Below, piece by piece: positions 11,113 to 64,000 of a stretch of 64,000 nucleotides of DNA (positions are counted from its first letter, which is position 1; each line of letters opens with the position of its first letter). This DNA comes from Mycolicibacterium goodii. GTDB taxonomy: Bacteria; Actinomycetota; Actinomycetes; Mycobacteriales; Mycobacteriaceae. The position numbers and the translations under genes are program-made. The notes beneath the pieces were generated by a model. The model was not told the origin of the DNA and searched no databases. It was given only the letters and a program-made list of their open reading frames with translations. The DNA lies in assembly GCF_022370755.2 (NCBI RefSeq), contig NZ_CP092364.2, positions 5,084,001-5,148,000 on the forward strand. The letters run 5' to 3'.

Positions 11113-12960
11113 CTACTCCACCGGCGGCGCGGGTTTCTGCGTCGTGAATTCGGGTTCGGGTTGTGGCGTCGGCTCGGGTTCCGGCTCCGCCGGCGGCGTG
11201 GGCTGCGGCGTCGCCGTCGGCTCAGGCTCGGGAGCGGAAGTGGGTTCGGGCTCCTGAGTCGGCTCAGGTGCCGGGCTCGGCTCCTGCGTCGGGGCAGCAG
11301 TGGGCGTGGGCGACGGAGAAGGCGTCGACGACGGAGGACTCGGCAGCACGAACGTCGGAATCGGCAGTTGCGGCAGCACCGGCCATTGCGGCACGGGTGC
11401 CGCCGCCGGTGGCGGGGTCGGTCGCGGTGCGGGCGCCGCCGCTCGAGGCGCAGGCCTCGATGGAACCCTCGGCGCCGCCTGTTGGGCCACCTGCCCGCTC
11501 TGCACCAGGCGCGGCGCGGCCGCCGGACGTGGCGCCGAGTGGGCGGGGGCCACAGGCGCGGCCGGGTCCTGGACCACCACGGTGCGGGTCGGCGGCGCGG
11601 GCAGCGACTGGGCCAGTGGCGATTCTGCGGGCACGGTCTGCGGCGCCAGCGGTGCGATCGCCGCGGCGGCGTCCAACCTGTCGGCGCGCACGGAGTACAC
11701 GAGGCCGACGGTTCCGACCACGGCCAAGAACGCCGCGGCGTAGAGCACGACCCCGCCGCGCCGGTACCACGGCCGCGCAGGCTCCGGCGTGACCTCGGGC
11801 GGCTCGACGAACACCAGATCCGGCCGCGCCGAACCTGCGGTGACCGCCTCGGCCCCCGCGTCAGCGGCGTCATCGACCGCCGACCAGGCCAGCGGCGGTG
11901 CCCACCCGGTCGTGGCGAAGGCATCTGCGGTGGACTGTGGTTCGGGCGCGACCGGGACGACGCGGCACGTCACGGTCTGGTCCTCGCCGCGATGCGCCAG
12001 CAGCGCGGCGCCGATCGCCGCGATCACCTGCGACTGCACCACGGTGGTCACCGGCATTCGGAATTCCTCGGAAAGCCGTTGTGTGACAAAGGGTATGCGT
12101 GCACCACCACCGACGGTGACCAGTGCCGCCAGCTGGGACGGGTGCACACCGTTGCGACGCAGCACGTCGTGCAGCGCATCGACCACACCGCCGAGCGGCT
12201 GGGCGACAACGGCTTCCACGTCGGCTCGGGTCAGCCGGATCGTGCTTCCCGGAGCGATTCCGGGCAGCCCGGTGGCGCCCTCGTAGCTCAGGCGTTCCTT
12301 GGCCAGCCGGCACTGGTCCCGCAACGCGGTCAGCGCCGACACCGCGGCGGTGCCCGACGGCTCGGCATCGAGGTCGGCGAGGACCCGCCGGAGGATCTCC
12401 TGGTCGACCAGGTCACCCGAGAAGTCCTCGTGCCTCACGGTGGCCAACGGCGCGAACCCGGTCGCGGCGTCGGCCAGTGTGAGGGTGGTCCCGCTCGCCC
12501 CGAAATCGCACAGCGCGACGATGCCGCGGGCGGGTAGACCGGGATGGGTCTGGATCGCCGTCAACGCGGCCACGGCGTCGGACACCACCCGGACACCGGG
12601 CAGTGCAGCCCGGGCCGCGTCGTAGGCGGCAGGGTGCCAGTGTGCGGGCACCGCCAACACCTGGTTCTCGGGGCGCCGGTCGGGTGCCGCCAGCCGTGAC
12701 ATCGCGCCCACGGCCGCGGCCAGCACGTGCTCGGCGCGGTGAGCGGATCCGTCGGCCGCGATGATCGGGACCGGGTCACCGATCCGCGCGACGAATTCGG
12801 AGATCGTCAGCCCGTCGCGGGCACGTTCGTCCGGTGGCGCACCGACCTCGGGTCCGCGATGTGGATACAACGTGAGGACCGCGCGCCGGATGACCGGCGC
12901 CTGGTCGGTGACTGCCACCAGGTTCGTCGTCCCGACGGACAACCCCAGGCAATCACGCAT
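11113..12960 (-). CDS. Membrane-anchored Hsp70-like protein with Pro-rich tail
   Basis: A 615-residue protein. Residues 1-320 resemble the Hsp70 nucleotide-binding domain: LGLSVGTTNLVAV (5-17), LCDFGASGTTLTL (150-162) and VTVGGGARIPFVTQRL (282-297). Compared with DnaK, the first-motif Asp is Ser, and phosphate-2 keeps only its first Asp (Asp152). No substrate-binding domain follows. Instead there is an acidic linker with LAWS at 357-360, a transmembrane helix (402-424), and a 190-residue Pro/Ala, then Pro/Glu/Thr tail. It starts 44 bp after iniC on the same strand, so an iniC operon is likely. Chaperone, sensor or scaffold roles are all open. Confidence 0.8.
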   Translation of the reverse strand: MRDCLGLSVGTTNLVAVTDQAPVIRRAVLTLYPHRGPEVGAPPDERARDGLTISEFVARIGDPVPIIAADGSAHRAEHVLAAAVGAMSRLAAPDRRPENQVLAVPAHWHPAAYDAARAALPGVRVVSDAVAALTAIQTHPGLPARGIVALCDFGASGTTLTLADAATGFAPLATVRHEDFSGDLVDQEILRRVLADLDAEPSGTAAVSALTALRDQCRLAKERLSYEGATGLPGIAPGSTIRLTRADVEAVVAQPLGGVVDALHDVLRRNGVHPSQLAALVTVGGGARIPFVTQRLSEEFRMPVTTVVQSQVIAAIGAALLAHRGEDQTVTCRVVPVAPEPQSTADAFATTGWAPPLAWSAVDDAADAGAEAVTAGSARPDLVFVEPPEVTPEPARPWYRRGGVVLYAAAFLAVVGTVGLVYSVRADRLDAAAAIAPLAPQTVPAESPLAQSLPAPPTRTVVVQDPAAPVAPAHSAPRPAAAPRLVQSGQVAQQAAPRVPSRPAPRAAAPAPRPTPPPAAAPVPQWPVLPQLPIPTFVLPSPPSSTPSPSPTPTAAPTQEPSPAPEPTQEPEPTSAPEPEPTATPQPTPPAEPEPEPTPQPEPEFTTQKPAPPVE

Positions 12961-13004
12961 ACCCGTATGTCGTCGGAACGGGCCGATTCGTTAAGCCGTG
13001 CCCG

Positions 13005-14498
13005 TCATCGGTGACGCGCGGCATATGCGGCGACGAGTGCTTCGGCGCTGCGCACCGCGGCCCGGCAGGCGCGCGTGGTGAACGGGTCATTGAGCGGGTG
13101 CTCGGCACGCCTGCGCCAACGTTGCGCTGCGGCGAACGCGGCACGCGGCCCGTCGTAGGGCTCGTCGGGGGTGAGGCCGAGCCGGCTGGCCGCATCGGTG
13201 CCCGAGCCGCCGATGATGCGGCGCAGCGAGGCCATCTCGTCGTCGTTGAGAGTCGTCGGCCGGGACCGCAGCTGGCTCAGCAGCCGCAGTTCCTCGAACG
13301 CGTGGGTGTCGGCGAGCAGCGGTTCGATGTCGGCAAGGATGTACGGCGTCGCGTAGATCGGGTTGCGTTGCACGAACTGTCGCAGCGACAACAGGGCGGT
13401 GTGCGCCTTGAGCAGCTCGGACCGCTGCGCGAACTGCTGGTCGATGACATCGCGTAGTGCGATCAGCCCACTGCGTTCGAGCAGTTCGTCGGCCAGCGCC
13501 ACCGAATCGGACACCCCGGCCCGCAGTACCGCGATCGAGATCCGGATCCCGAACATGCCGAATCGATCCAGCAGCGCGGCCCGGGTCGCGGCGTCGACGG
13601 GCAGCGCGCTGTCCTCGCGGACGAACCGGTCGACGGAGAGCATCGCCTTGGCGAGCTCGGCGGGGTCTACGCCGGCCAGCTTCTCCAGGGCGACGAACTC
13701 GCTCTGCCGCAGCGTGCGGGCGGTCACGGCGAGCAGCCCGGACACCGGGACGACGGCCTGGCAGATCCCGGTCTTGTCCATCTCGGCGGTGAACCGCTGG
13801 GCGACGTCCTTCGCCGACATCATCGCGTCGATGCGGCCGGCGCCGATCTCGTCAGCGCGGGAGGCGACGCCGATGACGCCGAGCGCGCCCGACGAGCCGC
13901 CGACGAGTTCTCCGATCTGCTTGAGCAGCGCGATGTCGGCGGCGTTGAGGGTGCGCAGCAGGAACACGACGGCGTCGACGCGCGGTACGCCGTCGTCGGG
14001 CACCAACAGGAGGTAGGTGCGTTCGGACACGTCCTGTGACAGCGACGAGGTTCCGGGGGTGTCGATGATGGTGGTGTCGACGAGCTCGACGGCAGGCCAC
14101 TCCACATCCAGGTCGATGATCTCGTGTGGGTCGAGGCCGTCGAAACTGAATGTCAGGCCCCGGTCGTGGGGGTCTCGCACGATGGGCACGTTGGAGCGTC
14201 GCCCGCCGCGGTGGTTGGCGGTCACCTTAGGGGTGGGGCCGTGCCGGAACCACGTGACGATCCGGGTCGCCTCGGTGGCGTCGGTGGGGGCTATCTCTTC
14301 GCCGAGCAGCGCGTTGACCAGCGTGGACTTACCCGCCTTCAGAGTGCCGGCGAGCGCGATGCGGATCGGCTGGTTGAGTTGCCACCCGATGCGCTCCAGC
14401 TCGTTGTGCACGTCGGGGCGGTGACGATATGCGGGGTCGCCACGATACGCCTGGACGGTGCCGCGCAGGATCGCGCGCACCTGATCGCCCGTGCTCAC
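13005..14498 (-). CDS. iniC: Dynamin-like GTPase IniC
   Basis: A 497-residue large GTPase of the bacterial dynamin group, part of the isoniazid-inducible ini system. G1 is GTLKAGKST (51-59), the G3-like motif is DTPGTSS, and the G4 position is the degenerate SRADE. Helical stalk regions follow; no transmembrane segment is obvious, unlike IniA. Start is GTG 14498. In M. tuberculosis iniC directly follows iniA. Here two opposite-strand genes (14672-15413) separate them, so iniC must use its own promoter in 14499-14671, where a tandem CCTTTCAAGCG repeat lies. The Hsp70-like gene follows it. Confidence 0.88.
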   Translation of the reverse strand: MSTGDQVRAILRGTVQAYRGDPAYRHRPDVHNELERIGWQLNQPIRIALAGTLKAGKSTLVNALLGEEIAPTDATEATRIVTWFRHGPTPKVTANHRGGRRSNVPIVRDPHDRGLTFSFDGLDPHEIIDLDVEWPAVELVDTTIIDTPGTSSLSQDVSERTYLLLVPDDGVPRVDAVVFLLRTLNAADIALLKQIGELVGGSSGALGVIGVASRADEIGAGRIDAMMSAKDVAQRFTAEMDKTGICQAVVPVSGLLAVTARTLRQSEFVALEKLAGVDPAELAKAMLSVDRFVREDSALPVDAATRAALLDRFGMFGIRISIAVLRAGVSDSVALADELLERSGLIALRDVIDQQFAQRSELLKAHTALLSLRQFVQRNPIYATPYILADIEPLLADTHAFEELRLLSQLRSRPTTLNDDEMASLRRIIGGSGTDAASRLGLTPDEPYDGPRAAFAAAQRWRRRAEHPLNDPFTTRACRAAVRSAEALVAAYAARHR

Positions 14499-14512
14499 GC
14501 TGCGGAGTCCAC

Positions 14513-14534
14513 CCTTTCAAGCGCCTTTCAAGCG
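14513..14534. repeat. Tandem 11-bp direct repeat upstream of iniC
   Basis: CCTTTCAAGCG occurs twice without a gap (14513-14523, 14524-14534), 15 bp before the iniC start. Eleven bases is one helical turn, a common geometry for regulator binding. It is in the divergent region between iniC and the holin-like gene. Confidence 0.6.
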
Positions 14535-14671
14535 GCCAACTCTTCGAGCTTAGGTCGTGCCGAATCGCGGGATCGCCGGCCCGACTGTTTGATCACCGGC
14601 ACCGCCGGGAAGCCTGCCGGCAGTGCAGCGTAACGGCTGTTCGTGCGAGGCGAGACGAAGCGAGACGAGAG

Positions 14672-15085
14672 ATGCAACCGAAAACCACTGTCGACACGCC
14701 GATCGGCGAACTGATGAGCCAGCTGTCGGCACAGACATCGCGGTTGGTCCGCGACGAGATGCGTTTGGCACAAAAGGAGTTCACCGAGTCGGCCAAGCAT
14801 GCCGGGATCGGTGCCGGGTTGTTCAGTGCCGCGGGCCTCATCGCCGTGTTCGGCCTGGCCGGGGTGGTCACCGCGGCGATCGCCGCGCTGGCGTTGGTGC
14901 TTCCGGTGTGGGCGGCGGCGTTGATCGTGGCGGTCGTCCTGTTCGCGATTGCCGGGATCACCGCGCTGATCAGCAAGAAGCAGATCGATCAGGCGTCGCC
15001 GACCCCGGAGAGGACGGTCGCCAACGTCAAACAGGACATCCACGAGGTACAGGACGAAGTGAGGACGGCCCGTCATGGCCGGTGA
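14672..15085 (+). CDS. Holin-superfamily-III-like membrane protein (DUF1469 type)
   Basis: A 137-residue protein: a charged N-terminal helix (TPIGELMSQLSAQTSRLVRD, KEFTESAK), two hydrophobic helices (about 47-72 and 75-100, ending GITALISKKQ), and an amphipathic C-terminus. This is the pattern of the actinobacterial 'phage holin family' proteins that, despite the name, are chromosomal envelope proteins usually paired with DUF3618. The ATG at 14672 begins the conserved part; the frame is open upstream but without signal. It overlaps the next gene by 11 bp. Insertion of this pair splits iniA from iniC. Confidence 0.78.
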   Translation: MQPKTTVDTPIGELMSQLSAQTSRLVRDEMRLAQKEFTESAKHAGIGAGLFSAAGLIAVFGLAGVVTAAIAALALVLPVWAAALIVAVVLFAIAGITALISKKQIDQASPTPERTVANVKQDIHEVQDEVRTARHGR

Positions 15086-15413
15086 CAACGCTGACAAGCC
15101 CGCGAATCCGCGACCGGAACCGGGTCCGGACGCCGGCGTGGCCGAGATCCAGGCCGATATCGACAAGACCCGCGACGAACTCGGTCAGACGGTGGAAGCG
15201 TTGGCGGCCAAGACCGACGTCAAGGCGCGGGTCCACGACAAGGCAGTCGAGACCAGGCAACGTGCCGTCGACAAGGCACACGCCGCGCAGGCCGCCACCC
15301 GCGACGCGATCACCGATGATCGGGGTGCGGTCAAGCCGGTGATCCCGGTGGGCGCGGTGGTCACCGTGCTGGTCGTCGTGGTCGGCGTCCTGTGGTGGCG
15401 GCGACGCCGCTGA
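15075..15413 (+). CDS. DUF3618 tail-anchored membrane protein
   Basis: A 112-residue protein with the DUF3618 signature: IQADIDKTRDELGQTVEALA followed by a helix of Lys, Asp and Ala repeats (AKTDVKARVHDKAVETRQRA). One C-terminal transmembrane helix (VIPVGAVVTVLVVVVGVLWW) ends in a run of arginines. Usually found next to holin-like DUF1469 proteins, as here, suggesting a complex at the membrane; function unknown. It converges with iniA with only 6 bp between stops. Confidence 0.85.
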   Translation: MAGDNADKPANPRPEPGPDAGVAEIQADIDKTRDELGQTVEALAAKTDVKARVHDKAVETRQRAVDKAHAAQAATRDAITDDRGAVKPVIPVGAVVTVLVVVVGVLWWRRRR

Positions 15414-15419
15414 CCCCTC

Positions 15420-17261
15420 TCAGGCCGGGCTCGGCGCCGCGTTCTGAGCCAGTTTGGTCGCGTGCTCGACCACCTGCTTGAGGATGTTCTGTTGCCGCTC
15501 GAGTTCCTTGACGCGCGTATTACGTTCGGTTTCCTCGACTTTCGCGGCAGCGATCGCGGCCTGTAGCGACTCGTTGAGGGATCGCGTGGTCTGGTTGGCG
15601 ATCTCACGGTAGTGATCGCGCAGTTGACGCTGAATTCCTTTGAGCCGGTCACGCGATTCCTTGCCGACGACGAATGCGACGTCGTCGACGAACTTGCGCA
15701 CGTTGGCCTTGGCCTCGTTGCGGACGCGCAGCATGCGGTTCTCCATGTCCTCCTTGTAGGCCTTGCGCCCCAGCACGAATCCGGCACCGATCGACAGCGG
15801 GTTGAACATGCCCAAACCTGCGAAAGACGTCAGCATGCCGAACATCAGTACCCCGCCGTAGGATCCGCGCATCCCGGTCACCACCTTGTGGCCGATCTTG
15901 ATCGGCTTGGCCTCCAACCGCGCCAGCGAGTTCAGCTCACCGAAGCCCGCACCCATGTCCCGCGCGTCGATCTGGGGCATCTGCACCGCATCGAGGCCGG
16001 CCTCGGTGAACGTCCGGGCCACCTCGGCCGCAAGTGCCTCGGCACGCTGATACGCCCACACGAAGTTGTCACCGACCGCGGTGGCGACCGCGTCCTCCAG
16101 TTCGGCGCCGATCTCGGCCCAGTGCAGCGTGGGATCGCAACCGTCGATCACCTTTTCGGTGTGCGCGGCGATGTTGCGGAACCGGTGCCGCAGGTCATGG
16201 TCGACGTCGGCGGTCAGGTCGGCGATGCCGTCGCCGAGCACCTGCTGCCACAACGCGGTCTGCTGCAACGCGTCCTGGGCCTCCTGCTTACGCCGCTCCA
16301 GTTCGGCAGTGAGCCGCTCCCGCTCCCCCGGATCGTTGAACGATGACAGCTCCGATTCCACGGCCAGCAGCAGATGCTCTGCCGCCGAGTTGATCTCGGC
16401 CACAATGTGATCGCGGATGCGGTCGTTCTCCCGGGACAGCACGCGCTCGGAGAGGAACTTCACGATCGCCGGGAAGTTCGACTCCTCGTTGAGCTCCTTG
16501 TCGTTGAGTTGGATGGCGTGGCTGCGCAGCACCGACGACGCCGGGATCATCGGAACGTTCAGCCCGGCCCGGTGCAGGTGCGCGGTGTTGGCGTCGACGA
16601 TCTTGCGCCAGTGCGGATACAGATCGGTCTTGGTCGCGACGATCGCCGCCACCGGGCAGACCTCAAGCGCCTGCCGGATGAATGTCATCTCGGGCTCGGT
16701 GAACTCCTGGCTGGTGTCGCTGACCATCAGCATCGCGTCGGCGTCGGGCAGCAGACCCAGCGTCGCCGAAAGGTGGGGTTGGCCGTGTCCGCCGACGCCG
16801 GGTGTGTCGACGAACGCCAGGCCCCCCTTGAGGAGAGGGCTGGGCGCGGTGACCTCGATGCGCAGCACCTGCCTTCCGCCCGCCTGCGGCGCACGTCGCA
16901 GGTCGTTCGTGACCTCGGAGGGCGGAATGTCGATCAGTTCCGGTTCGGCGCCGTCGGGGCGGGCCACCACGAGCCGAGCCGAGGCCTGTTCGCCGTAGGA
17001 CACCACGGTCGCCAGGACCGTGCTCTCGTCGTCACCGACCCGGGCCACGGGAATGTTGAGCAGCGAGTTGAGCAGTTGGCTCTTGCCTTGCTTGAGCTGT
17101 CCGGCGATGACGACCCGGATCTGCGGATCACTGATCCGGACCTTCGCGGCACGCAGCCGTTCCACCAGATCGCCGCGATCCTTGGCGGCGGCGATCGCGC
17201 TCAGGTGGTCGATCAACTCGACGATCACCTTGACCTTGCGGGGGTCGTTCGGTTGCGTCAT
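15420..17261 (-). CDS. iniA: Dynamin-like membrane GTPase IniA
   Basis: A 613-residue bacterial dynamin-like protein. G1 is GQLKQGKS (54-61), G3 DTPGVGG, G4 TKTD. Long helical stalk segments follow, and a hydrophobic paddle near residues 470-500 (MFGMLTSFAGLGMFNP, IGAGFVLG) inserts in membranes. Family work on mycobacterial IniA describes membrane fission and repair and links it to isoniazid and ethambutol tolerance. The ribosome site is AGGAGG. It follows iniB with a 99-bp gap holding a strong hairpin (17297-17340). It ends facing the DUF3618 gene rather than running into iniC. Confidence 0.92.
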   Translation of the reverse strand: MTQPNDPRKVKVIVELIDHLSAIAAAKDRGDLVERLRAAKVRISDPQIRVVIAGQLKQGKSQLLNSLLNIPVARVGDDESTVLATVVSYGEQASARLVVARPDGAEPELIDIPPSEVTNDLRRAPQAGGRQVLRIEVTAPSPLLKGGLAFVDTPGVGGHGQPHLSATLGLLPDADAMLMVSDTSQEFTEPEMTFIRQALEVCPVAAIVATKTDLYPHWRKIVDANTAHLHRAGLNVPMIPASSVLRSHAIQLNDKELNEESNFPAIVKFLSERVLSRENDRIRDHIVAEINSAAEHLLLAVESELSSFNDPGERERLTAELERRKQEAQDALQQTALWQQVLGDGIADLTADVDHDLRHRFRNIAAHTEKVIDGCDPTLHWAEIGAELEDAVATAVGDNFVWAYQRAEALAAEVARTFTEAGLDAVQMPQIDARDMGAGFGELNSLARLEAKPIKIGHKVVTGMRGSYGGVLMFGMLTSFAGLGMFNPLSIGAGFVLGRKAYKEDMENRMLRVRNEAKANVRKFVDDVAFVVGKESRDRLKGIQRQLRDHYREIANQTTRSLNESLQAAIAAAKVEETERNTRVKELERQQNILKQVVEHATKLAQNAAPSPA

Positions 17262-17296
17262 GGGTTCCTCCTGCCGGGCTCAACGGTAGGCGCGCG

Positions 17297-17340: not shown

Positions 17341-17360
17341 GCGTTATGCGGTTGTTCGGA

Positions 17361-18630: not shown

Positions 18631-18644
18631 GGACCACGAACCCA

Positions 18645-19529: not shown

Positions 19530-21293
19530 ATGACCGACGCACTGGGGTTGTCGATCGGGATAACCAATCTGGTGGCAGCCCGCGAAGGCGGTGCACCGGT
19601 GGTCCGCCGATCGATCCTCAATCTGTACCGCGACCGTGCCCCGGAGGTCGGCGAACTCGGCGGCGACGGGCTCGCCCTGACCGGCTTCGTCGAACGCACC
19701 GGCGATCCGGTGCCGATCGTCGCCGCCGACGGCTCGCAGCATCGCGGCGAGCTGGCGCTCGCCGAGGCGCTCGACGCGATGGCCCGCGCGGCAGGCGGCG
19801 GTGCGCCGGTCGCGGTGGCGACCCCCGCATACTGGGGGCCCGCTGCGCTGGGCGCGCTGCGCGGTGCACTCCGCAACAAGCCCGCGTTCGCGCCGGACGG
19901 CATTCCCGCTGCGCTGGTTCCCGATTCGATGGCCGCGTTGGCGGCGTTGCGGGCCGGGCCCGGTCTGCCCGCCGACGGTGTCGTGGTGTTGTGCGACTTC
20001 GGCGGCAGCGGCACGAGCGTGACGCTCGCCGATGCCGGCGCGGATCTCGCGGCGCTGGGCCAGACGGTGCGCTATCCGGAGTTCTCCGGTGACCAGATCG
20101 ACCAGTCGGTGCTCAACCACGTCCTCACCGGCATCGCCGCGGCCAACGACGCCGATCCGGCGGGTACCGCCGCGGTGGGATCTCTGGCTCGGCTGCGCAG
20201 CGACTGCCGAACCGCCAAGGAGGCATTGTCGGCCGACACCGTCGCGACGATCCCGGCGGAGCTGCCCGGCTTCAACTCCGAGGTGCGGATCACCCGCCCC
20301 GAACTCGAGCAGCTGATCTCCGGACCGCTCGACGGTTTCCTCAATGTCGTCGAGGACACCTTGCAGCGCAACAACATCGCGTTGTCCAGCGTGACCGCCG
20401 TGGCCACCGTCGGCGGAGGTGCCGCGATTCCCTTTGTGACCCAACGTCTTTCCGAGCGCCTGCGGGCGCCGGTGGTGACCTCGCCGCAGCCGCAGCTCGT
20501 CGCGGCGGGCGGGGCTGCGTTGATCGCCGACCGTGCCGTGGATGCCGGTGCGCCGACGGGACTGGCTCCCGAGGTGGCTGCCGCGGATGCGCCGACCGGG
20601 TTGGGGCCTGCCGCCGCAGTGGGTGCGGCCGCCGCCGCGGCCGGGGACAGCCCGGAATCGTCGACGTTCCGCGCGCTGGCGTGGTCGGAGGACGACGCGC
20701 CCCCCAATGAGCCGGTGCCCTACGCGGGGACCGACTACGGATACGAGTCGCCGACAGGTGCGACAGCGGCCCGACCGCCCGTGGAGTTCAGCCACGAAGA
20801 GGAGATGTACGACACCGGGCCTGCCCCGCTGCCCTGGTACAAACGTCCGCCGATCCTGTTCGGCGCGGCCGCGGCCGCCGCGCTGCTGGCCGCGGGCGGC
20901 CTTGCCGTCACGCTCACCAGCACATCCAGCGATTCGTCGCCGGTCACCGAGACCAGCACCACCTACTCGATGGGTCCGTCGCCCGAAGGTCCTCCCCCCG
21001 AGCCGGTCACCACGGTGACCGTCGGTCCCAACGGACAGCAGACCACCACCGTGGTGGTACCTCCGCCGCCGGCCACCACGACGACGACCGAACCCACGTC
21101 GACGACGAGCCCGACCACCACCACAACCACGACCACAACCACCACGACAACGACGACGACCACGACCACGCCGCCGACGACGACGCGCACAACCACGACG
21201 CCGCCGACCACCACACCGCCACCGACCACGACGCAGCCACCGGTCACGACGACGGTCGAAGTTCCCGACGTTCCGGACGACGGCGGCGCCTGA
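19530..21293 (+). CDS. Membrane-anchored Hsp70-like protein with Thr-rich tail
   Basis: A 587-residue protein. Residues 1-335 resemble the Hsp70 ATPase fold: LGLSIGITNLVAA (5-17), LCDFGGSGTSVTL (154-166) and ATVGGGAAIPFVTQRL (293-307). As at 11113-12960, the first-motif Asp is Ser and the peptide-binding domain is missing. An Ala-rich linker contains FRALAWSEDD (380-389). A helix (about 442-463) precedes a 120-residue Thr tail including a 17-residue Thr run. A ribosome site (CAGGAG) is present. The IniR-like gene follows after 14 bp, so this protein and the ini regulator are likely co-expressed. It may report envelope state to that regulator; this is inference. Confidence 0.8.
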   Translation: MTDALGLSIGITNLVAAREGGAPVVRRSILNLYRDRAPEVGELGGDGLALTGFVERTGDPVPIVAADGSQHRGELALAEALDAMARAAGGGAPVAVATPAYWGPAALGALRGALRNKPAFAPDGIPAALVPDSMAALAALRAGPGLPADGVVVLCDFGGSGTSVTLADAGADLAALGQTVRYPEFSGDQIDQSVLNHVLTGIAAANDADPAGTAAVGSLARLRSDCRTAKEALSADTVATIPAELPGFNSEVRITRPELEQLISGPLDGFLNVVEDTLQRNNIALSSVTAVATVGGGAAIPFVTQRLSERLRAPVVTSPQPQLVAAGGAALIADRAVDAGAPTGLAPEVAAADAPTGLGPAAAVGAAAAAAGDSPESSTFRALAWSEDDAPPNEPVPYAGTDYGYESPTGATAARPPVEFSHEEEMYDTGPAPLPWYKRPPILFGAAAAAALLAAGGLAVTLTSTSSDSSPVTETSTTYSMGPSPEGPPPEPVTTVTVGPNGQQTTTVVVPPPPATTTTTEPTSTTSPTTTTTTTTTTTTTTTTTTTPPTTTRTTTTPPTTTPPPTTTQPPVTTTVEVPDVPDDGGA

Positions 21294-21307: not shown

Positions 21308-23830
21308 ATGTCCAACCCGGCACCGGAACACGCGGTGGAACTACCGCGGGTCCTGCGCGGGGTGATCGCCGGGGGGCCGGCACAACCCGCCAAGTTGTTG
21401 GTGTCCGGTGGGATCGGGACCGGCAAATCCACCGTTCTCGCGGCGGTACGGGCCGCGCTGCGGGAGGCCGGCCACACCGTGCTCACCCGGCCGCCGAGGT
21501 CCGACGACGATGCGGCGGCCGTGTTCGTCATCGACGACGTGCACCTTCTCGCCGATGATGAGATCGATTGTCTGACAGAGAGATCCACGGACCCCGAGTC
21601 GACGGTGGTGGTCGCGGCCGAGCCGCTCGCGCACCGGCGGGCGCTGCGGGCACTGGCGACCGCCCTGGAGCGTGAGAACCCCGTGGTGACGCTCGCACCG
21701 ATGTCTGCGCCCGACGTCGGACGCATCCTGTCGACCACCCTGGGTGCGCCGCCACCCCCCGAGACGGTCCGCTCGGTACTCGCGGTCACCGCGGGCCTGC
21801 CCTTCCTGGTGCGCGCGGTGGCCGCATCCGCCGCCGAACCCGAGGAGGCCGCCCGTTACGCGCTGATCGAGCGGCTGCGGCACCTCGACGAGCAGACCCG
21901 CGACACCCTGCTGATCGTGTCGCTGAGTCTGGACCTCGGGCCCGATGACGTCGCGGGCGCCCTGCGCGTCAGCGGCGCCGACGCCTCGGCACTGGTGGAC
22001 CGGGCCAGGGCCGGCGGCCTGGTCGAACCCGCCCACGACAAGAGGTTTCTGCGCCTGGTGCACACGTGCGTCGCGCAGATCGCCGGCACGGCCCGCCACC
22101 ACGACCTCGAGATCGCACTGCTGCGTTCACAACTCGAAATGTCCACGCTGTCAACCGAACTCGCCGTCCGACTGGCCGAGCACGGCGTACGCGACGACCG
22201 GCTCGCCGAGGCGCTCACCGACCGTGCGGTGCGGGTGCGTGGCCGGCCGGCCCACGCAGCCCGGCTGTACCGTGCCGCGGCCCGCGCGGGTTCGGCTGCA
22301 CTCAACGCGCGCCTGGCCGATGCGCTGGCCCTGTCGGGTGACTGTGCGACGGCAGGCCGCATGGCCGACGACCTGCTCAGCTCCGAGGATCCGGCCGACC
22401 GCGCGGCCGCGGTCCGCATCGCTGCCAGCATCGCGCTGCACGACGGCAGTGCCGCCCAGGCCGCCGACCTGTTCCGGTGGCTCGGCCCCTACCCGGATGC
22501 GGCCGTCAGCTCGGCGGGCACGGTCGTGCTGCTCGCCGCGGGCGACGCCGCCTCTGCGCGGGCGGCGTTGAGCACCGAGCTCGCCGGCCCGCCGACGTCG
22601 GCGGCGCGAGCGGCCCGCAGCCTGGCCCAGGGCCTGGTGTCCTCGCTGGACCAACCGTTCGCGGTCACGGTCGCGCGCCTCGGCCAGGCCGTCACCGCCG
22701 TGCCGTACACCGACGGCGTCGCACCGGACAGCCCTTCGGCATTGGTGGCGCTCGCGGCGCTGCACGGCGGAGACTCGGTCCGTGCGCGCAGCGTGATCGC
22801 ACGCGCGGTGCGGGGCGGAACGCCCGACACCGAAAACGGCGCGACACCGTGTTCTTCACCGTTCTCGGCAGCCCGCCATCGACTGCTGCTCGGCTGGGTC
22901 AAGATGCAGGACGGTCAACTGGCCGCCGCTGGTGCCGACGTGGCCGCCGCCGAGTCCGGGCCGCCGTTGCACCGCCGCGACGCGCTGTGGGCCGCGGCGC
23001 TGCGCACCGCGATCGCGCGGCGCAGCGGGGACAGCGGAGCCATCCAGCGGCATTGGTACGCCGCGATGGAGGTGCTCGCCGAGTACTCGATCGACCTCTT
23101 CTCGTTGCTGCCTCTCGGCGAGTTGTGGGTGGCGTCAGCGCGCATGCGACAGCTCGACCGCCTCGAGCACCCGTTGTCGGAGGCGTTCGGGCTGCTCGAA
23201 GCGCTCGGCAAGCCCGTGTTGTGGTCGATGCCGCTGCACTGGGCGGGGGTCCACGCGGGGATCCTCGTCAACTCGCCGAGTGCGGTGGCACCGCACGGCC
23301 AGGCGCTCACCGCGGCGGCCGGTCACAGCCCGTTCGCTCGTGCGCTGGCCGGCGCGGGCCGGACCTGGCTGCGGGTGCTGGCCAACCATGTCGACGTCGA
23401 CGAGGTCGGCGCGGCCGCCCGTGGGTTGGCACAGTTCGGACTGACGTGGGACGCCACGCGGCTGGCGAGCCAGGCGGCGTTGCAGACCTCCGATGCCCGG
23501 GTCTCGCAGGCGATGCTGCAGCTGGCCCGCGACCTCAAGCAGTCCGGCGCGACCGACGACACGTCGGCACCCGAGACAACGCATACACCGCAGGCCGCAC
23601 AGGTGAGCGCCCCGGCCGGATCCACGCGCCTGTCCGAGCGCGAGCGTGAGGTCGCCGAGCTGTTGCTGCTCGGCATGCCGTACCGCGACATCGGCAATCA
23701 ACTGTTCATTTCGGCAAAGACCGTCGAGCACCATGTGGCCCGGATTCGCAGGCGGCTGGGCGCCGAGTCCCGCTCCGAGATGTTGTCGATGCTGCGCGCG
23801 ATGCTCGATACGCCTTCCGGGCCGAGCTGA
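21308..23830 (+). CDS. iniR: IniR-like LuxR-family ATPase regulator
   Basis: An 840-residue signal-transduction ATPase with a LuxR HTH. The P-loop GGIGTGKS is at 34-41, Walker B VFVIDD at 72-77, a long helical TPR-like middle follows, and the C-terminal HTH (about 776-835) reads LSEREREVAELLLLGMPYRD, then FISAKTVEHHVARIRRRLG. Position and size match Rv0339c of M. tuberculosis, which I recall being reported as IniR, an activator of iniBAC responding to trehalose; this is from memory. It likely recognises the dyad or TTAGGGGA boxes near iniB. Cotranscribed with the Hsp70-like gene upstream. Confidence 0.82.
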   Translation: MSNPAPEHAVELPRVLRGVIAGGPAQPAKLLVSGGIGTGKSTVLAAVRAALREAGHTVLTRPPRSDDDAAAVFVIDDVHLLADDEIDCLTERSTDPESTVVVAAEPLAHRRALRALATALERENPVVTLAPMSAPDVGRILSTTLGAPPPPETVRSVLAVTAGLPFLVRAVAASAAEPEEAARYALIERLRHLDEQTRDTLLIVSLSLDLGPDDVAGALRVSGADASALVDRARAGGLVEPAHDKRFLRLVHTCVAQIAGTARHHDLEIALLRSQLEMSTLSTELAVRLAEHGVRDDRLAEALTDRAVRVRGRPAHAARLYRAAARAGSAALNARLADALALSGDCATAGRMADDLLSSEDPADRAAAVRIAASIALHDGSAAQAADLFRWLGPYPDAAVSSAGTVVLLAAGDAASARAALSTELAGPPTSAARAARSLAQGLVSSLDQPFAVTVARLGQAVTAVPYTDGVAPDSPSALVALAALHGGDSVRARSVIARAVRGGTPDTENGATPCSSPFSAARHRLLLGWVKMQDGQLAAAGADVAAAESGPPLHRRDALWAAALRTAIARRSGDSGAIQRHWYAAMEVLAEYSIDLFSLLPLGELWVASARMRQLDRLEHPLSEAFGLLEALGKPVLWSMPLHWAGVHAGILVNSPSAVAPHGQALTAAAGHSPFARALAGAGRTWLRVLANHVDVDEVGAAARGLAQFGLTWDATRLASQAALQTSDARVSQAMLQLARDLKQSGATDDTSAPETTHTPQAAQVSAPAGSTRLSEREREVAELLLLGMPYRDIGNQLFISAKTVEHHVARIRRRLGAESRSEMLSMLRAMLDTPSGPS

Positions 23831-37963: not shown

Positions 37964-39658
37964 CTAGTGCCGACCGCCGCCGAACGGGAACGGCCAGATA
38001 CCGCCGCCGTTGCCGCCCGAGCCGCCGCCGTTGTGACCACCGGAACCGCCCGAGCCGCCGGGATTCCAGCCGCCGTTACCGGACCCTCCCCGGTCGGAGC
38101 CGCCCGAGGATCCACGCCCCGGGTTCCAGTCGCCGTCACCACCGCCACGGCGACCGCGGCCTGGGCCGTCATCCGAGTCGTCACCGGGGTTCCAGCCACC
38201 GGAGCCGGGCCACTGCGGCTGCGGTGCCTGCTTCGGCGGATCCCACGGCGGGTTCCACGGGTTCTGCTGCGGCGGGCGCTGCGGTTCCCACGGTGGCCGG
38301 AAGATCGACGGAACGCGCGGCAGCACCACAACCGGCGGGACGTATCCCGGCGGCTGGTAGATCGGTGCCGGCGCGGGAAGCACCGGCGCGGGTGCCACCG
38401 GGGCCGGAGCCGGCGGGGGCGCCTCGGGTGCCGGTGGCGGTGCCGCGGGAGCCGGTGCCGGTGCCTGCGGTTGTTCCACATACACCGTGCGCGGCGGGGC
38501 CTGCGGCTGCGGGGCCTCCTGCACCACGGGGACCGGGGCCTTGATGGTCTCGGGTGGCGGGGCCGGCGGCGGAGCTTCCTGCACCGGCTTCGCCTCGGGA
38601 GCAGGGGCAGGCGCGGGAGCCTTGGCGGCCGGTGCGCTCGGTACGACGGCGCCCTGTGCGGGAGCGGGACGCTGGTCGACCGTGGGGCGGATGCTCACCG
38701 CGAGCGAGATGACGAGTGCCACGACGCCGATGACGAACACCGAGGTCAGCGCGCTGCCGACCAGGAGGAACGGTTTCCGCTCCTCGTCGGCGGCGGCCTC
38801 GTTGAACAGCGCGGGGTCGAGGTCGTCCACCTCGCTCGCGACGCCGCCCCCGACCAGGCTGCCGAGATCCGAGCGGGCCGGCGCGAGCTGCGTGTCCAGA
38901 CCCGCCAGTGCGTAGGCGCTGCCCGCGGTCGGGCCGTCAGGGTCCTGTGAGTACGCCAAACCGACGGTGGACGCTTCGAAGGCCGGCGCGTGCGCCGACG
39001 CCAGGGCGGCACCGCGGGCCAGCGCCAGCTCCGGTTCCTCGGGAGCGTTGACGGGCATCGACACGAGGTGCTGCAGGTGCTCCTTGACGGAGCTGACGTC
39101 GACACCCGAACCCACGATGAACATGCCGTCGGGCGGGGTCTCCTGCGCGGCGACCGCTGCGGCCATGTCGGTGAGGACAGCCATCGCGTCGGTGCTGTGC
39201 AGCGAGCTGCCGAGCACCTTGACCACCGAGCCGTCCTCGGTCTGCACCACCGACAGCGTGGCGGCGTCGCGATCGATGAACAGCAGTGCGGTGGTGTCGT
39301 ATCCGACGGCACGGCCGACGGCCTGCGCCAGCGCCGCGGCGGCGTGGCCTTCCGAGACCATCATGACGTCGTCGATGCCGTGCGCGGTGAGTGAGTCGCG
39401 CAGCGCGGACGCGTCGGAATGATCACTCCACGTGACACCGATCGACTTGAGATGATGCCCGCCCGATTCGGCGCTCTCTTGTGTTCCGAGGATTGCCGCG
39501 ACGACCTGATCGGCCGCGCTCATCGTTGCCACGTCGTCGGTGGCGGTGACGTCGAAGACGTCGTGATCGACGGTGACCCCGTCGGCGTTCTCCCCCTCGA
39601 CCAGCACCATGCGGACCGTCGTGGGTGTCATCGACACACCCAGTACGATGTCCACCAT
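37964..39658 (-). CDS. DUF7159-type actin-fold-like membrane protein with Pro/Gly-rich tail
   Basis: A 564-residue protein. Residues 1-220 look like a divergent actin/Hsp70-type fold: IVLGVSMTPTTVRMVLVEG (4-22), DTTALLFIDRDAATLSVV (121-138), FIVGSGVDVSSVKEHL (180-195). LAYS at 234-237 parallels LAWS in the Hsp70-like proteins. A helix (about 298-323) precedes a Pro/Ala-rich then Gly/Asn/Trp-rich tail ending in WPFPFGGGRH. ATG 39658 is chosen for its GGAGGG ribosome site; the frame continues 22 codons upstream. Exported-tail topology is inferred. Function unknown. Confidence 0.72.
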   Translation of the reverse strand: MVDIVLGVSMTPTTVRMVLVEGENADGVTVDHDVFDVTATDDVATMSAADQVVAAILGTQESAESGGHHLKSIGVTWSDHSDASALRDSLTAHGIDDVMMVSEGHAAAALAQAVGRAVGYDTTALLFIDRDAATLSVVQTEDGSVVKVLGSSLHSTDAMAVLTDMAAAVAAQETPPDGMFIVGSGVDVSSVKEHLQHLVSMPVNAPEEPELALARGAALASAHAPAFEASTVGLAYSQDPDGPTAGSAYALAGLDTQLAPARSDLGSLVGGGVASEVDDLDPALFNEAAADEERKPFLLVGSALTSVFVIGVVALVISLAVSIRPTVDQRPAPAQGAVVPSAPAAKAPAPAPAPEAKPVQEAPPPAPPPETIKAPVPVVQEAPQPQAPPRTVYVEQPQAPAPAPAAPPPAPEAPPPAPAPVAPAPVLPAPAPIYQPPGYVPPVVVLPRVPSIFRPPWEPQRPPQQNPWNPPWDPPKQAPQPQWPGSGGWNPGDDSDDGPGRGRRGGGDGDWNPGRGSSGGSDRGGSGNGGWNPGGSGGSGGHNGGGSGGNGGGIWPFPFGGGRH

Positions 39659-39947
39659 GCCCTCCAAAGTGTTTGCTACACTGCCTAAGTCGCCAATTTG
39701 CGAGCCGTCTGCACAAGCCGACAACTAGAACCTTCATCGACACAGCCGGCGCATTCGTTACATCCGAACGCGTTAGCTGACGCGCTGCAGTCCCGGTCGG
39801 TTCCCCACGGCTTCGCACACCGACGTCGGTACCTTTCGACCCTACTCGGCTATACGACGCCCAGCGCAGAACAGTTCATCCCTGTTGACGGATATCCCAC
39901 ATCCACCGGTCACTTCCGTCACGCCGTTCACACGGCACACGCACCCT

Positions 39948-59965: not shown

Positions 59966-59967
59966 AT

Positions 59968-60930: not shown

Positions 60931-61913
60931 GCGCACTTCTTCAGGTGACCGACCTGAAGGTCAGCTTCACCACCGATGGCGGGGTGGTCCGCGCGGTCGA
61001 CGGGGTCTCGTTCGACCTGAAACCCGGCGAGATCCTCGCTGTGGTCGGCGAATCCGGTTCGGGTAAGAGCGTAACGGCCCAAACCCTGATCGGGCTGACC
61101 CGCGCGTCGAACGCGGCGATCGCCGGTGCGATCGACTTCGGCGGCCGCGACATCAACACGCTCGACGACGAGGCGCTGCGCGAGGTCCGCGGTGAGCACA
61201 TCGCGATGGTGTTCCAGGACCCCATGACATCGCTGAACCCGGTGTACCGGGTCGGTGACCAGATCATCGAGATGATCCGTGCCCACCGTGACGTATCCAA
61301 GGCCGAGGCGCGCGCCAAGGCCGTCGAACTGCTTCGCGCGGTGGGCATTCCACACCCGGAGCGGCGGATCTCGGACTATCCGCACGAGTTCTCCGGCGGT
61401 ATGCGCCAACGCGTCATGATCGCCATGGCACTCGCGCTCGAACCCGAGGTGTTGATCGCCGACGAGCCGACCACCGCACTCGACGTCACGGTCCAGGCCC
61501 AGATCCTGCGCCTGGTCGACCGGCTCAACCAGGAGCGGAAACTGGCGGTGGTCCTCATCACCCACGATCTCGGTGTGGTGGCCGAGGTCGCCGACCGCGT
61601 GGTGGTGATGTACGCCGGGCAGATCGTCGAGGACGGCACGCTCGACGAGATTTTCTACGATCCGCAACACCCCTACACGTGGGGCCTGCTCGGGTCGCTG
61701 CCGCGGGTCGAGGACACACAACGGGGACGCCTGCAACAGATCCCGGGGCACCCGCCGTCACTGCTGAACCCGCCGAGCGGATGCCGGTTCGCGGCGCGTT
61801 GCGCGCATGCGTTCGACAAGTGCTCACAGCCACCGCCGTTGGCGGACCACTTGGGTGACGGACATCTGGATCGCTGCTGGCTCACGCCGGAGGAGAAGAG
61901 GACGCTGCGGTGA
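60927..61913 (+). CDS. DppD/OppD-type ABC ATPase
   Basis: A 328-residue ATPase: Walker [11 protein letters not shown] (about 39-48), signature [12 protein letters not shown], Walker [14 protein letters not shown], and the C-terminal oligopeptide-transporter extension with [14 protein letters not shown] and CRFAARC/KC cysteines that often carry an iron-sulfur cluster in this family. The ATG at 60927 overlaps the DppB stop; the longer open frame upstream is rejected as it lies within dppB. Confidence 0.92.
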
Positions 61914-62920
61914 CCGCGCTGCTGGAAGTGACCGATCTGGTCAAACATTTCCCGATCAAATCCGGGGTCGTCATCGACCGGGAGGTCGCGAAGGTACGCG
62001 CGGTCGACGGGGTCAGCCTGACCCTGCACCAGGGCGAAACCCTGGGCCTGGTCGGCGAATCGGGCTGCGGAAAGTCGACCCTGTGCCGGCTGATCCTGCA
62101 GCTGATCCAGCCGACGTCGGGCTCGGTGCGGTTCGAGGGAGTCGAACTCGTCGGACGGTCGCAACGCGACCTGCGGCCGATGCGCCGTCAGGTGCAGATG
62201 ATCTTCCAGGACCCGTACGCCTCGCTGAACCCCCGTAAGCGGGTCGGGCAGATCATCGGTGAGCCGATGGAACTGCACGGCCTGACCTCGGGGGCGCAGA
62301 CCGGCCACAGGGTCCGCGAATTGATGGAACGCGTCGGCCTGCAGGCCGAGCACTACAACCGCTACCCGCACGAGTTCTCCGGCGGGCAGCGCCAACGAAT
62401 CGGCATCGCGAGAGCCCTTGCCCTGCAACCCAAGCTGATCATCGCCGACGAACCCGTGTCCGCGCTGGACGTTTCGGTGCAGGCCCAGATCATCAATCTT
62501 CTGAAGGATCTGCAGGAGGAGTTCGGGCTGTCGTACCTGTTCGTCGCACACGACCTGGGTGTCGTGCGCCACGTGTCGGACCGGGTCGCGGTGATGTACC
62601 TCGGCAAGATCGTCGAGACGGGCCACGTGGACGGCCTGTACCGCACACCGTTCCATCCGTATTCGAGTGCGCTGCTGTCCGCGGTGCCGATCCCCGATCC
62701 CCGCCGCAACGCGGCGCGCGAACGCCTGGTTCTCGAGGGCGACGTGCCGAGCCCGATCGACCCGCCGTCGGGGTGCAGCTTCCACACGCGGTGCCCGTGG
62801 TGCACCGAGATCTGCAAGGACCAGACCCCGGCACTGCTCGATCTGGCGCCCGGGCATGCCGCCGCGTGCTATCACCCACGCAACGTGGAGACGACGAGCC
62901 CGCAGGCCGCGCTTCCCTGA
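61910..62920 (+). CDS. DppF/OppF-type ABC ATPase
   Basis: A 336-residue ATPase: Walker [10 protein letters not shown], signature [12 protein letters not shown], Walker [15 protein letters not shown]-terminal [12 protein letters not shown] and cysteine-containing [15 protein letters not shown] segment. GTG 61910 overlaps the preceding stop. Last gene of the importer operon. It ends one base from the convergent Hsp70-like gene, with no terminator between them. Confidence 0.92.
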
Positions 62921-62921
62921 C

Positions 62922-64000
62922 TCAGGGATACGGCTGGAACGGGCTCTGCGGGTACTGCGGGTACTGCGGGTTCTGGGGGTATTGAGGCGGGTACTGCGGT
63001 TGGGGCTGCTGCTGACTCGGCACCTGGATCGGGATCGGCACCGGCACGAACGGCACCGTGATGTACGTGGTCGTCATCGGGTTGGTGGTCGTCGTCGGTG
63101 TCGTCGTCGTCGGCGTGGTCGTGGTTGTGGTGGTGGTTGTCGTCGTGGTCGTGGTTGTGGTGGTGGTTGTCGTCGTGGTCGGCTGTGTTGTCGTCGTGGT
63201 GGTGGGCGCCGTCGTGGTCCGGGTGACGACGTGCGTCTCGGTGACCGGCGGTGGCGGCGGTGGCGGTGCCTCGGTGACCGGCGGTGGTGGCGGCGGGGGC
63301 GCCTCGGTCACCGGTGGCGGGGGCGCGACCGCGCTCGGTTCCGGTTCGGGTGTCAGAGGTTTGGGTTCGGCGGTACGCACCTCGGTGGTCGGGGTGGTGC
63401 TGGTCGAACTCGTGAGCACGTACGTCACTCCACCGATGGCCACCAGGACCGACGCCACGGCGATCCCGAACACGGTGAGTGGCAGACGTTTCCACCCGCT
63501 CTCGGGCTGCTCGATCGGGCCGGTGGGCGGCACGTACTGCACCGAGGGCCTCGCCGACGTGTCACCGGCGTAAGGGTTGGCGGCATACGGGTTGCCCACA
63601 TCGGGCCCCGCATAGGGCACGACGTCGTCAGCGGGCTCGTCCTCCGACCACGCCAGTGCGCGGAACGTGGACGAGCCCTCCTGATCCGGCGTCACATCGA
63701 CCGCAGGGGCGCTCGCGGTGGCCACGTCGGACACGGCCGCGACACCGAGTGTGGGTGCGGCACCGGTCATCGCCTCCGCGTCTGCCACACCCGATGCGGT
63801 GACCCCGGAGGCCACCAGCGCAGCACCGACCGCGGCGTCGAGGGCGGGCTGCGGCGTGGTGACCAGCACCGCACGTGAGTGCTCCGAAAGCCGTTGGGTG
63901 ATCAGCGGAATGCTCGCACCCCCGCCGATCGTCACGACGGCCGACACCGCCGACCAACTGAACCCGTTGCGCTCCAAGGAACTGTCGAGTGCGTCGAGCA
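62922..64000 (-). CDS. Membrane-anchored Hsp70-like protein with Thr-rich tail (partial)
   Basis: The N-terminal part is beyond the window edge; about 359 residues remain. VVTIGGGASIPLITQRLSE matches the adenosine-site motif of the two other Hsp70-like proteins. A linker contains STFRALAWSEDE (codons near 63639-63674), almost identical to 19530-21293. A helix (LTVFGIAVASVLVAIGGVTYVL) then a Pro/Glu/Thr tail follows, with a long Thr run coded by an exact 30-bp tandem repeat, ending in YPPQYPQNPQYPQYP-type Tyr/Pro/Gln repeats. Thus a third paralogue with the same layout. Confidence 0.78.
   Translation of the reverse strand, partial: LDALDSSLERNGFSWSAVSAVVTIGGGASIPLITQRLSEHSRAVLVTTPQPALDAAVGAALVASGVTASGVADAEAMTGAAPTLGVAAVSDVATASAPAVDVTPDQEGSSTFRALAWSEDEPADDVVPYAGPDVGNPYAANPYAGDTSARPSVQYVPPTGPIEQPESGWKRLPLTVFGIAVASVLVAIGGVTYVLTSSTSTTPTTEVRTAEPKPLTPEPEPSAVAPPPPVTEAPPPPPPPVTEAPPPPPPPVTETHVVTRTTTAPTTTTTTQPTTTTTTTTTTTTTTTTTTTTTTPTTTTPTTTTNPMTTTYITVPFVPVPIPIQVPSQQQPQPQYPPQYPQNPQYPQYPQSPFQPYP
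63121..63180. repeat. Exact 30-bp tandem duplication in Thr-coding tract
   Basis: Positions 63121-63150 and 63151-63180 are identical (GTGGTTGTGGTGGTGGTTGT then CGTCGTGGTC in each). It lies in the Thr tail of the Hsp70-like gene and is in frame, so copy number could change without breaking the gene. Confidence 0.9.

What the first reader, a model, noticed from the sequence alone, without database searches (positions are those of the whole stretch)
11113..64000. Family of four actin/Hsp70-fold-like proteins rebuilt as single-pass membrane proteins
The proteins at 11113-12960, 19530-21293, 37964-39658 and 62922-64000 share a plan. An Hsp70-like or actin-like ATPase fold is followed by an acidic or Ala-rich linker, one transmembrane helix and a 120-240 residue Thr-, Pro- or Gly-rich tail. 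The first three keep no peptide-binding or lid domain, which DnaK in the same window has in full. This suggests a role in sensing or scaffolding at the envelope rather than in folding. I know of no characterised pathway for them.
Basis: partly seen in the sequence, partly recalled or inferred. Interest (0 to 1): 0.78.

Follow-up and report, generated by a model that had tools for sequence, protein, structure and literature searches.

The report
Membrane Hsp70-like partners of bacterial dynamins
This mycobacterium carries several membrane proteins made from the ATP-binding half of the chaperone Hsp70, and two of them sit among the genes that respond to cell-envelope damage, next to dynamin-like membrane remodelers and their regulator, an arrangement seen again in many related bacteria.

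Summary
Protein C is another family (DUF7159) with a degenerate actin/Hsp70-type domain. A further paralogue (F) lies elsewhere. In 101 related genomes, 53 of 61 strong IniA loci have such a protein within 25 kb, and 52 of 55 IniR genes within 10 kb. A catalytically intact type sits beside other dynamin pairs, but linkage there is partial. The ini-type group has lost the catalytic lysine (0 of 42, then 0 of 15 in a second sample) and keeps the adenosine glycines. NBD and dynamin trees are congruent (r 0.86). Exported parts vary between lineages. I read the window proteins as non-hydrolysing nucleotide-binding receptors that tie envelope state to IniR and the dynamin pair. Homology and linkage are shown; the mechanism is inferred. 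No structure could be predicted because the machine stayed busy.

The parts
11113..12960 (-). Protein A: Hsp70-type NBD (about 11965-12960), linker with LAWS motif, TM (about 11698-11754), Pro/Thr/Ala-rich tail; directly downstream of iniC
13005..14498 (-). IniC-like dynamin GTPase
   Evidence: PF00350 41.2 bits; tree
15420..17261 (-). IniA-like dynamin GTPase
   Evidence: PF00350 52.9 bits
17361..18476 (-). IniB (IniB N-terminal domain protein)
   Evidence: NCBIfam IniB_NTERM 71.7 bits
18756..19286 (-). Rv0340-family IniB-related protein (probably iniB* of PMC5760070)
   Evidence: NCBIfam Rv0340_fam 194.8 bits
19530..21293 (+). Protein B: Hsp70-type NBD (about 19530-20540), LAWS linker, TM (about 20853-20909), Thr/Pro-rich tail; 14 bp upstream of the iniR frame
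21308..23830 (+). IniR, STAND-type ATPase with LuxR-type DNA-binding domain
   Evidence: NCBIfam reg_ATPase_IniR 1390.6 bits; Pfam GerE
37964..39724 (-). Protein C: DUF7159 protein with degenerate actin/Hsp70-type domain, TM (about 38696-38752), Pro- then Gly-rich tail; likely start 39658
62922..64000 (-). Protein D, 3' part: end of the NBD, LAWS linker, TM (about 63423-63479), Pro/Thr-rich tail; the frame continues beyond the window (L007:6922-8916:-)
5808..7661 (-). DnaK, full length: the comparator
   Evidence: HSP70 746.7 bits

Best explanation
A, B, D and F are membrane-anchored proteins built on the Hsp70 nucleotide-binding domain, without its substrate-binding half. Shown: one predicted helix follows the NBD, charge places the NBD inside, and a tail that varies by lineage follows outside. 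B and A belong to the iniBAC/IniR envelope-stress locus, and a family member in that locus is conserved. The ini-type group has lost residues for ATP hydrolysis and kept the adenosine motif. Inferred: in the window they act as nucleotide-binding receptors. The exported tail reads the state of the cell wall or the growing pole, and the NBD, in a nucleotide-dependent shape, holds or releases IniR and positions the IniA/IniC dynamin pair at the membrane for repair, much as MalK at the membrane restrains the STAND activator MalT. The intact type beside other dynamin pairs would be the older, ATP-hydrolysing form that cycles on the dynamins themselves.
For: Linkage: 53 of 61 strong IniA loci have a family member within 25 kb (median 4.7 kb) and 52 of 55 IniR genes within 10 kb. 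The NBD gene is followed by iniR on the same strand, with under 200 bp between or overlapping frames, in 21 of 28 loci that hold both. In a second, order-wide sample, 18 of 19 loci with iniA>iniC order have it. Paired versus solitary dynamins in the first samples: 27 of 31 versus 0 of 17. Co-inheritance: IniC and NBD trees show the same clades, r 0.863, 0 of 2000 permutations, and in 8 genomes where both dynamin types were read each keeps its own NBD type. Catalysis: Lys70 40 of 40 in the intact type versus 0 of 42; Asp8 40 of 40 versus 0 of 42; Thr199 39 of 40 versus 1 of 42; adenosine glycines kept in all. Repeated: Lys70 20 of 20 versus 0 of 15. Topology: TM in 42 of 42 and 39 of 40, more Lys/Arg on the NBD side in 39 of 42 and 37 of 40. 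Sensor-like outer parts: PD40 propeller, NHL propeller and BON. Published: MSMEG_0692, 1 TMH, 'ATP binding', recovered with the FhaA polar complex after cross-linking (PMC11898655, section 5); iniA is MSMEG_0695 (PMC2945938, passage), so MSMEG_0692 is probably protein B; iniBAC induction follows an ATP burst (PMC6104191, passages).
Against: No interaction, binding or mutant data tie these proteins to IniR. PMC5760070 implies that M. tuberculosis and M. marinum run IniR without this gene at the locus (passage), so it is not strictly needed for induction. A genome of the window's genus (G067) has four members and no IniA or IniR hit. In 8 loci of the order sample the ini-linked protein is the NBD alone, without a TM, so membrane sensing cannot be universal. 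In the second sample only Lys70 is lost throughout: Asp8 stays in 12 of 15 and Thr199 in 8 of 15, while Asp194 is lost in 12 of 15. Some loci pair an IniR-like gene with an intact NBD protein (L037, L066, L068, L069, L153). Loss of hydrolysis is read from residues only. No structure was obtained.
Confidence: 0.45

Rival explanations
1. Actin-like scaffold: the NBDs assemble or bind like FtsA or PilM and simply anchor envelope machinery (FhaA complex, dynamins) at the pole; no signalling to IniR.
For: FhaA cross-linking recovered MSMEG_0692 with polar growth proteins (PMC11898655, section 5); a pocket without hydrolysis fits a static adaptor; family members outside the ini locus (15 of 78 rows).
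Against: Best matches are Hsp70, with MreB below cut-off; the operon coupling to iniR (21 of 28) is unexplained; no polymer evidence.
Confidence: 0.22
2. Chaperone-type remodeling of dynamin oligomers, as Hsc70 does for coats: the NBD uses an ATP cycle with a J-protein to take dynamin lattices apart.
For: Intact catalytic residues in the type beside other dynamin pairs; cyanobacterial dynamins next to DnaK-domain genes (PMC5827413, passage) and a dynamin gene with a DnaJ-like domain (PMC6104087, passage).
Against: A, B, D and F lack the intact catalytic set and any DnaK-type linker; Pfam found no J-domain in the dynamins, IniB, the Rv0340-family protein or IniR, though the Rv0340-family protein has one HPD tripeptide near its end.
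Confidence: 0.15
3. The exported Thr/Pro-rich tail is the working part (a wall-spanning or adhesive mannoprotein) and the NBD is a relic used as an anchor.
For: Tails of the four family members of this genome are 46-72% Thr, Pro and Ser.
Against: The NBD is the constant part and the tail the variable one: 8 loci keep an NBD-only protein beside iniR and iniA; the adenosine glycines are kept in all 42.
Confidence: 0.1
4. Ordinary dnaK duplicates that stayed near dnaK by history, without a shared function with the dynamins.
For: dnaK lies about 3-12 kb away in the window and in several other loci; many similar NBD proteins in other actinobacteria are not beside dynamins in the rows listed.
Against: Linkage also holds where no dnaK was seen in the fetched region (L020-L024, L027 and others); trees are congruent and two types keep to their own dynamin clade; 0 of 71 plain DnaK loci have a dynamin pair versus 6 of 9.
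Confidence: 0.06

Closest known systems
DnaK/Hsp70
   Same: NBD homology and adenosine motif over about 335 residues
   Different: No linker motif, no substrate-binding or lid domain, a TM and exported tail; the ini-type group lacks Asp8 and Lys70, and Thr199 in 41 of 42
HSPA13/Stch (recalled)
   Same: Hsp70 NBD without the peptide-binding half
   Different: Not a C-out single-pass receptor beside dynamins, as far as I recall
iniBAC/IniR locus (PMC5760070, passages)
   Same: IniA, IniC, IniB, the Rv0340-family protein and IniR are all here; the paper mentions a dnaK-like gene by iniR in M. smegmatis
   Different: In the passages I saw, the NBD protein is not treated as a component, nor are its spread, membrane plan or lost catalysis described
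Cyanobacterial dynamin 'chaperone group' (PMC5827413, passage)
   Same: DnaK-domain gene downstream of a bacterial dynamin gene
   Different: The passage speaks of Hsp70 chaperones, not of a TM or a missing substrate-binding half; another phylum
MalK-MalT control (recalled; a MalT-like domain of IniR is in PMC5760070, passage)
   Same: A membrane-bound ATP-binding protein paired with a STAND activator
   Different: MalK is an ABC ATPase; restraint of IniR by the NBD protein is untested
Receptor kinases such as PknB/PknD (recalled)
   Same: Constant cytoplasmic nucleotide-binding domain, one TM, swapped outer domains including propellers
   Different: Hsp70 NBD in place of a kinase

Membership tests
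Hsp70 chaperones | NBD with phosphate and adenosine motifs | tested here: met
   Pfam, profile and PDB-sequence matches; adenosine glycines kept
Hsp70 chaperones | Catalytic Asp8, Lys70, Thr199 | tested here: not met
   0, 0 and 1 of 42 in the ini-type group that holds A, B, D and F; in a second sample 12, 0 and 8 of 15
Hsp70 chaperones | Interdomain linker and substrate-binding/lid domains | tested here: not met
   LLLD motif 0 of 82 against 5 of 6 DnaK; Pfam match ends at profile 373 of 599 for A and B
Hsp70 chaperones | J-protein and GrpE dependence | not testable with these tools
   needs biochemistry
Actin-like filament proteins (MreB, FtsA, PilM) | Best match to that family | tested here: not met
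   MreB_Mbl 21.7 (B) and 19 (A) bits, cut-off 27; HSP70 scores higher
Actin-like filament proteins (MreB, FtsA, PilM) | Polymer formation | not testable with these tools
   needs biochemistry
DUF7159 (protein C) | Pfam model over cut-off | tested here: met
   65.2 bits, cut-off 27
Hsp70 family (protein C) | HSP70 model match | tested here: not met
   no HSP70 hit up to E 1; distant relation only by profile comparison
iniBAC/IniR system component (A, B) | Conserved place in the locus | tested here: met
   the position of A is seen also in G096 but not in G050 or G028
iniBAC/IniR system component (A, B) | Induction by IniR or effect on it | not testable with these tools
   needs expression and mutant data

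The most novel reading that the evidence does not exclude
A new class of transmembrane receptor: an Hsp70 NBD inside, swapped sensor domains outside, paired with bacterial dynamins. In the IniR branch it became a pseudo-ATPase that reports cellular ATP and envelope damage to a MalT-like activator; in the other branch it is an active ATPase that works on the dynamin pair, a bacterial parallel to the Hsc70-dynamin partnership of eukaryotes.
Probability: 0.35. Interest if true: 0.87.

Novelty: new variant of a known kind. Interest (0 to 1): 0.74.

Why it matters
iniBAC is a widely used reporter of cell-wall drug stress in mycobacteria, yet how damage reaches IniR and what the IniA/IniC dynamins do are open. 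A conserved membrane protein with an outer part and a nucleotide-binding inner domain, coupled to iniR and inherited with the dynamins, is a concrete candidate for the missing sensor. It also suggests that Hsp70-type domains and dynamins may be partners in bacteria more widely, as was noted for some cyanobacteria (PMC5827413, passage).

Tried and rejected
Structure prediction was asked for 20 times (18 times for B, twice for C) and never accepted, the machine being busy, so fold claims rest on sequence and profiles.

A conserved minus-strand 352-aa frame upstream of F looked like a partner but is the shadow of a plus-strand dehydrogenase-like gene. The tails of the intact type aligned poorly, and Pfam named no common domain in those tested. 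A phage-defence reading was checked: only distant LeoA/LeoBC hits to the dynamins, a weak tail hit for F and a DNA-binding-domain hit for IniR. A first impression that all dynamin pairs carry the NBD protein was corrected by the order-wide sample: 34 of 57 uncut loci outside the family.

Rows dropped or added before counts. IniA rows with E at or below 3.3e-91; NBD rows above 130 bits plus one weak row added by hand (G011, read at L036); IniR fragments merged and G082's short hit left out. NBDs under 150 bits or outside 290-430 residues were left out (L036 and L037 among them). Solitary dynamins: 13 of 16 weak phylum rows were fetched, and L094 (an IniA-like gene without IniC seen, no NBD protein) was left out of both sides. 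L242 was left out. The LAWS linker motif was found in 15 proteins, all of the window's genus; loose matches in L048 and L163 are not the motif.
Full report
What is in the window. The window is G000:C1:5084001-5148000 of a 6.74 Mb genome. A is window 11113-12960 minus, B is 19530-21293 plus, C is 37964-39724 minus, and D starts at 62922 minus and runs past the window end. A further member, F, is at L008:8003-9772 plus, about 3.5 Mb away. A, D and F are 51-59% identical to B over the NBD. Each has an NBD of about 335 residues, a linker with a LAWS motif, one hydrophobic helix preceded by Trp and Arg/Lys, and a tail of 125-192 residues that is 46-72% Thr, Pro and Ser. C is DUF7159 and has no HSP70 hit. 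Profile comparison aligns C with a mixed profile of the family and the intact type at probability 98, E 2.5e-13 for the pair, but with the intact type alone only at probability 45. Its PDB matches, all weak (E 0.0012 to 0.86), are activase, MreB, PilM and Hsp70 folds. Some genes in other genera are hit by both profiles, for example G049:C1:462633-463487.

Surroundings. On the minus strand run the Rv0340-family gene, iniB (NCBIfam IniB_NTERM), IniA, IniC (Pfam dynamin) and then A. On the plus strand B is followed 14 bp later by the IniR frame (NCBIfam 1390.6 bits). So B and A flank the iniBAC set. PMC5760070 (passages) states that M. [quoted passage not shown] it is the only mention of such a gene by iniR that I saw. 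My paper searches for the link were made, and for DUF7159, Rv0312 and MSMEG_0692; the library holds open-licence papers only.

Linkage in related genomes. The same 101 genomes of the family (30 genera) were searched for the NBD family, IniA and IniR. Of 61 strong IniA loci, 53 have a family member within 25 kb. The 8 misses are 3 loci that are split between contigs (G089, G005, G095) and 5 IniA-like genes in one genus, g22; the four of these that I fetched have no IniC partner (L102-L105). Of 55 IniR genes, 52 have one within 10 kb, and the 3 misses are also split loci. Of 78 family rows, 15 are far from the locus: 14 in the window's genus and one at a contig start. So the family was probably tied to the ini locus before it spread in this genus as D and F. 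I fetched 20 ini-type regions for reading, most of them picked because one search showed a hit; all 20 hold an NBD protein. In L038 it sits at the iniC end rather than beside iniR.

A second type. Weaker IniA hits marked 29 further loci, all fetched. Three are cut by contig ends and one shows no IniC. Of the other 25 pairs, 21 have an Hsp70-type NBD protein, 18 within about 4 kb and 3 at 9-12 kb; L058, L092, L097 and L101 have none. In a phylum-wide sample of 149 genomes, 6 of 6 strong IniC loci outside the genus have it (L070 shows only the IniC half). Of 16 solitary dynamin rows there, 13 were fetched and none has it, though some of those regions are short (3.6-13 kb). Among 80 named loci, 9 hold the NBD type and 6 of them sit beside a dynamin pair: Pseudonocardia sulfidoxydans, two Paractinoplanes species, and Ilumatobacter, Acidimicrobiaceae and Frankiaceae metagenome bins. 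None of the 71 plain DnaK loci does (two had spurious partial hits). Fisher tests: 27 of 31 against 0 of 17, p 1.4e-9; 6 of 9 against 0 of 71, p 2.8e-7; neither corrects for shared ancestry.

A harder test. I then took a sample of 150 genomes of the order and fetched all 59 strong IniC loci outside the family. With gene order iniA>iniC, 18 of 19 have the NBD protein (the hit in L242 looks like a ROK kinase and I count it as a miss); 15 of the 19 have IniR. With order iniC>iniA, 15 of 38 have it and 23 do not, one of these cut by its contig; 22 of the 23 come from two families (f58, f59). Two loci could not be ordered, one with and one without. Similar NBD proteins, up to 13 in a genome, occur in this order, most without a dynamin beside them in the rows listed, a list that was cut. 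So the link is near universal for ini-type loci and partial elsewhere.

Two catalytic states. In 89 aligned NBDs (42 ini-type, which include A, B, D, F and other members away from the locus; 40 other; 7 DnaK), Asp8, Lys70, Glu171 and Asp194 are intact in 40 of 40 of the other type and Thr199 in 39 of 40. In the ini type Asp8 is 0 of 42, Lys70 0 of 42, Thr199 1 of 42 and Glu171 19 of 42, while Asp194 is 41 of 42 and the adenosine glycines 42 of 42. The type labels come from profiles built on these sequences, so I repeated the count on the order sample: Lys70 is missing in all 15 ini-type proteins (IniR seen beside 14 of them, L270 being cut), and all five residues are present in 20 of 20 of the other type. 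In that sample the rest of the loss differs: Asp8 stays in 12 of 15 and Thr199 in 8 of 15, while Asp194 goes in 12 of 15; the adenosine glycines stay in 15 of 15. Five loci pair an IniR-like gene with an intact protein (L037, L066, L068, L069, L153). The NBD tree puts the ini type in one clade (support 0.78) inside the intact type, next to intact proteins from loci that include four of those five (joint support 1.0), and all apart from DnaK (0.897). So the loss looks derived. Distances in the IniC and NBD trees correlate at r 0.863 over 55 loci, 0 of 2000 permutations as high; this does not remove the species tree. In 8 genomes where both dynamin types were read (G077, G091, G024, G038, G088, G079, G092, G025), each dynamin type has its own NBD type.

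Plan of the protein. A helix follows the NBD in 42 of 42 ini-type and 39 of 40 other proteins of that set, 0 of 6 DnaK. Lys/Arg are commoner on the NBD side in 39 of 42 and 37 of 40, which predicts NBD in, tail out. Outer parts differ: rich in Thr, Pro and Ser in the window's genus, two or more cysteines in 29 of 40 of the other type, a PD40 propeller in Paractinoplanes durhamensis, an NHL propeller in a Frankiaceae bin, BON in L066 and a SnoaL-like hit in L122 that is below its cut-off. In 8 loci of the order sample, from two genera, the ini-linked protein is the NBD alone; a ninth is cut. The NBD is thus the constant part and the outer part is exchanged, as in receptors.

Published data that bear on function. 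FhaA cross-linking in M. smegmatis recovered MSMEG_0692, listed as a Thr/Pro-rich 1-TMH ATP-binding protein with Rv0312 as the M. tuberculosis match, together with polar and mycolate-transport proteins (PMC11898655, section 5). As iniA is MSMEG_0695 (PMC2945938, passage), MSMEG_0692 is probably B; this rests on tag order and I had no sequence for it. In BCG, wall inhibitors raise ATP, and suppressing that rise suppresses iniBAC induction (PMC6104191, passages). IniR has a MalT-like domain and iniBAC responds to trehalose (PMC5760070, passages).

How it most likely works. Shown: homology, predicted architecture, place in the locus, co-inheritance, loss of catalytic residues. Inferred from these: nucleotide binding without turnover, outer sensing, and control of IniR or of dynamin placement. 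The MalK-MalT comparison is recalled and is an analogy. Against it stands that M. tuberculosis and M. marinum appear to lack the gene at this place, although M. tuberculosis has a relative elsewhere (Rv0312), that the NBD-only form exists, and that intact proteins also occur with IniR-like genes. I put the receptor reading at 0.45, a polar scaffold at 0.22 and dynamin remodeling at 0.15 for the window proteins.

Novelty. The parts are known kinds: Hsp70 NBD, bacterial dynamins, the ini locus. A dnaK-like gene by iniR in M. smegmatis and DnaK-domain genes by cyanobacterial dynamins are in print. What I did not find in print, within the searches named above, is the membrane plan with its spread, the two catalytic states and the co-inheritance. 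I rate it a new variant of a known kind.

Noticed in passing
window 14499-15419: About 920 bp separate iniA and iniC, which lie close together or overlap in the other ini loci read; the gap holds a plus-strand DUF3618 frame at 15075-15413.
   Followed up: partly
L235-L241, L243-L257: A dynamin-pair lineage with reversed order (iniC-like then iniA-like), no IniR and no NBD protein in the fetched regions, common in two families of the order.
   Followed up: partly
G366, G272, G332: 10 to 13 Hsp70-NBD matches of the intact type per genome, most not beside dynamins in the rows listed; their partners are unknown.
   Followed up: no
L262-L269: The ini-linked NBD protein has no TM (about 412-448 aa) and keeps the phosphate-1 Asp while lacking Lys70.
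   Followed up: partly
L048-L050 (G067): A genome of the window's genus keeps four family members, two in tandem, but has no IniA or IniR hit.
   Followed up: no
L120:17794-19236: A second, divergent or partial family member follows iniR in G050; other genera also show a second copy beyond iniR (L022, L125).
   Followed up: no
L008:6865-7938: A DAP_DH_C dehydrogenase-like gene directly upstream of F; its antisense frame is conserved beside F-like genes in five other genomes.
   Followed up: partly
G066:C1:3810784-3812505: The IniA homologue shows one in-frame TGA; left as it is.
   Followed up: no
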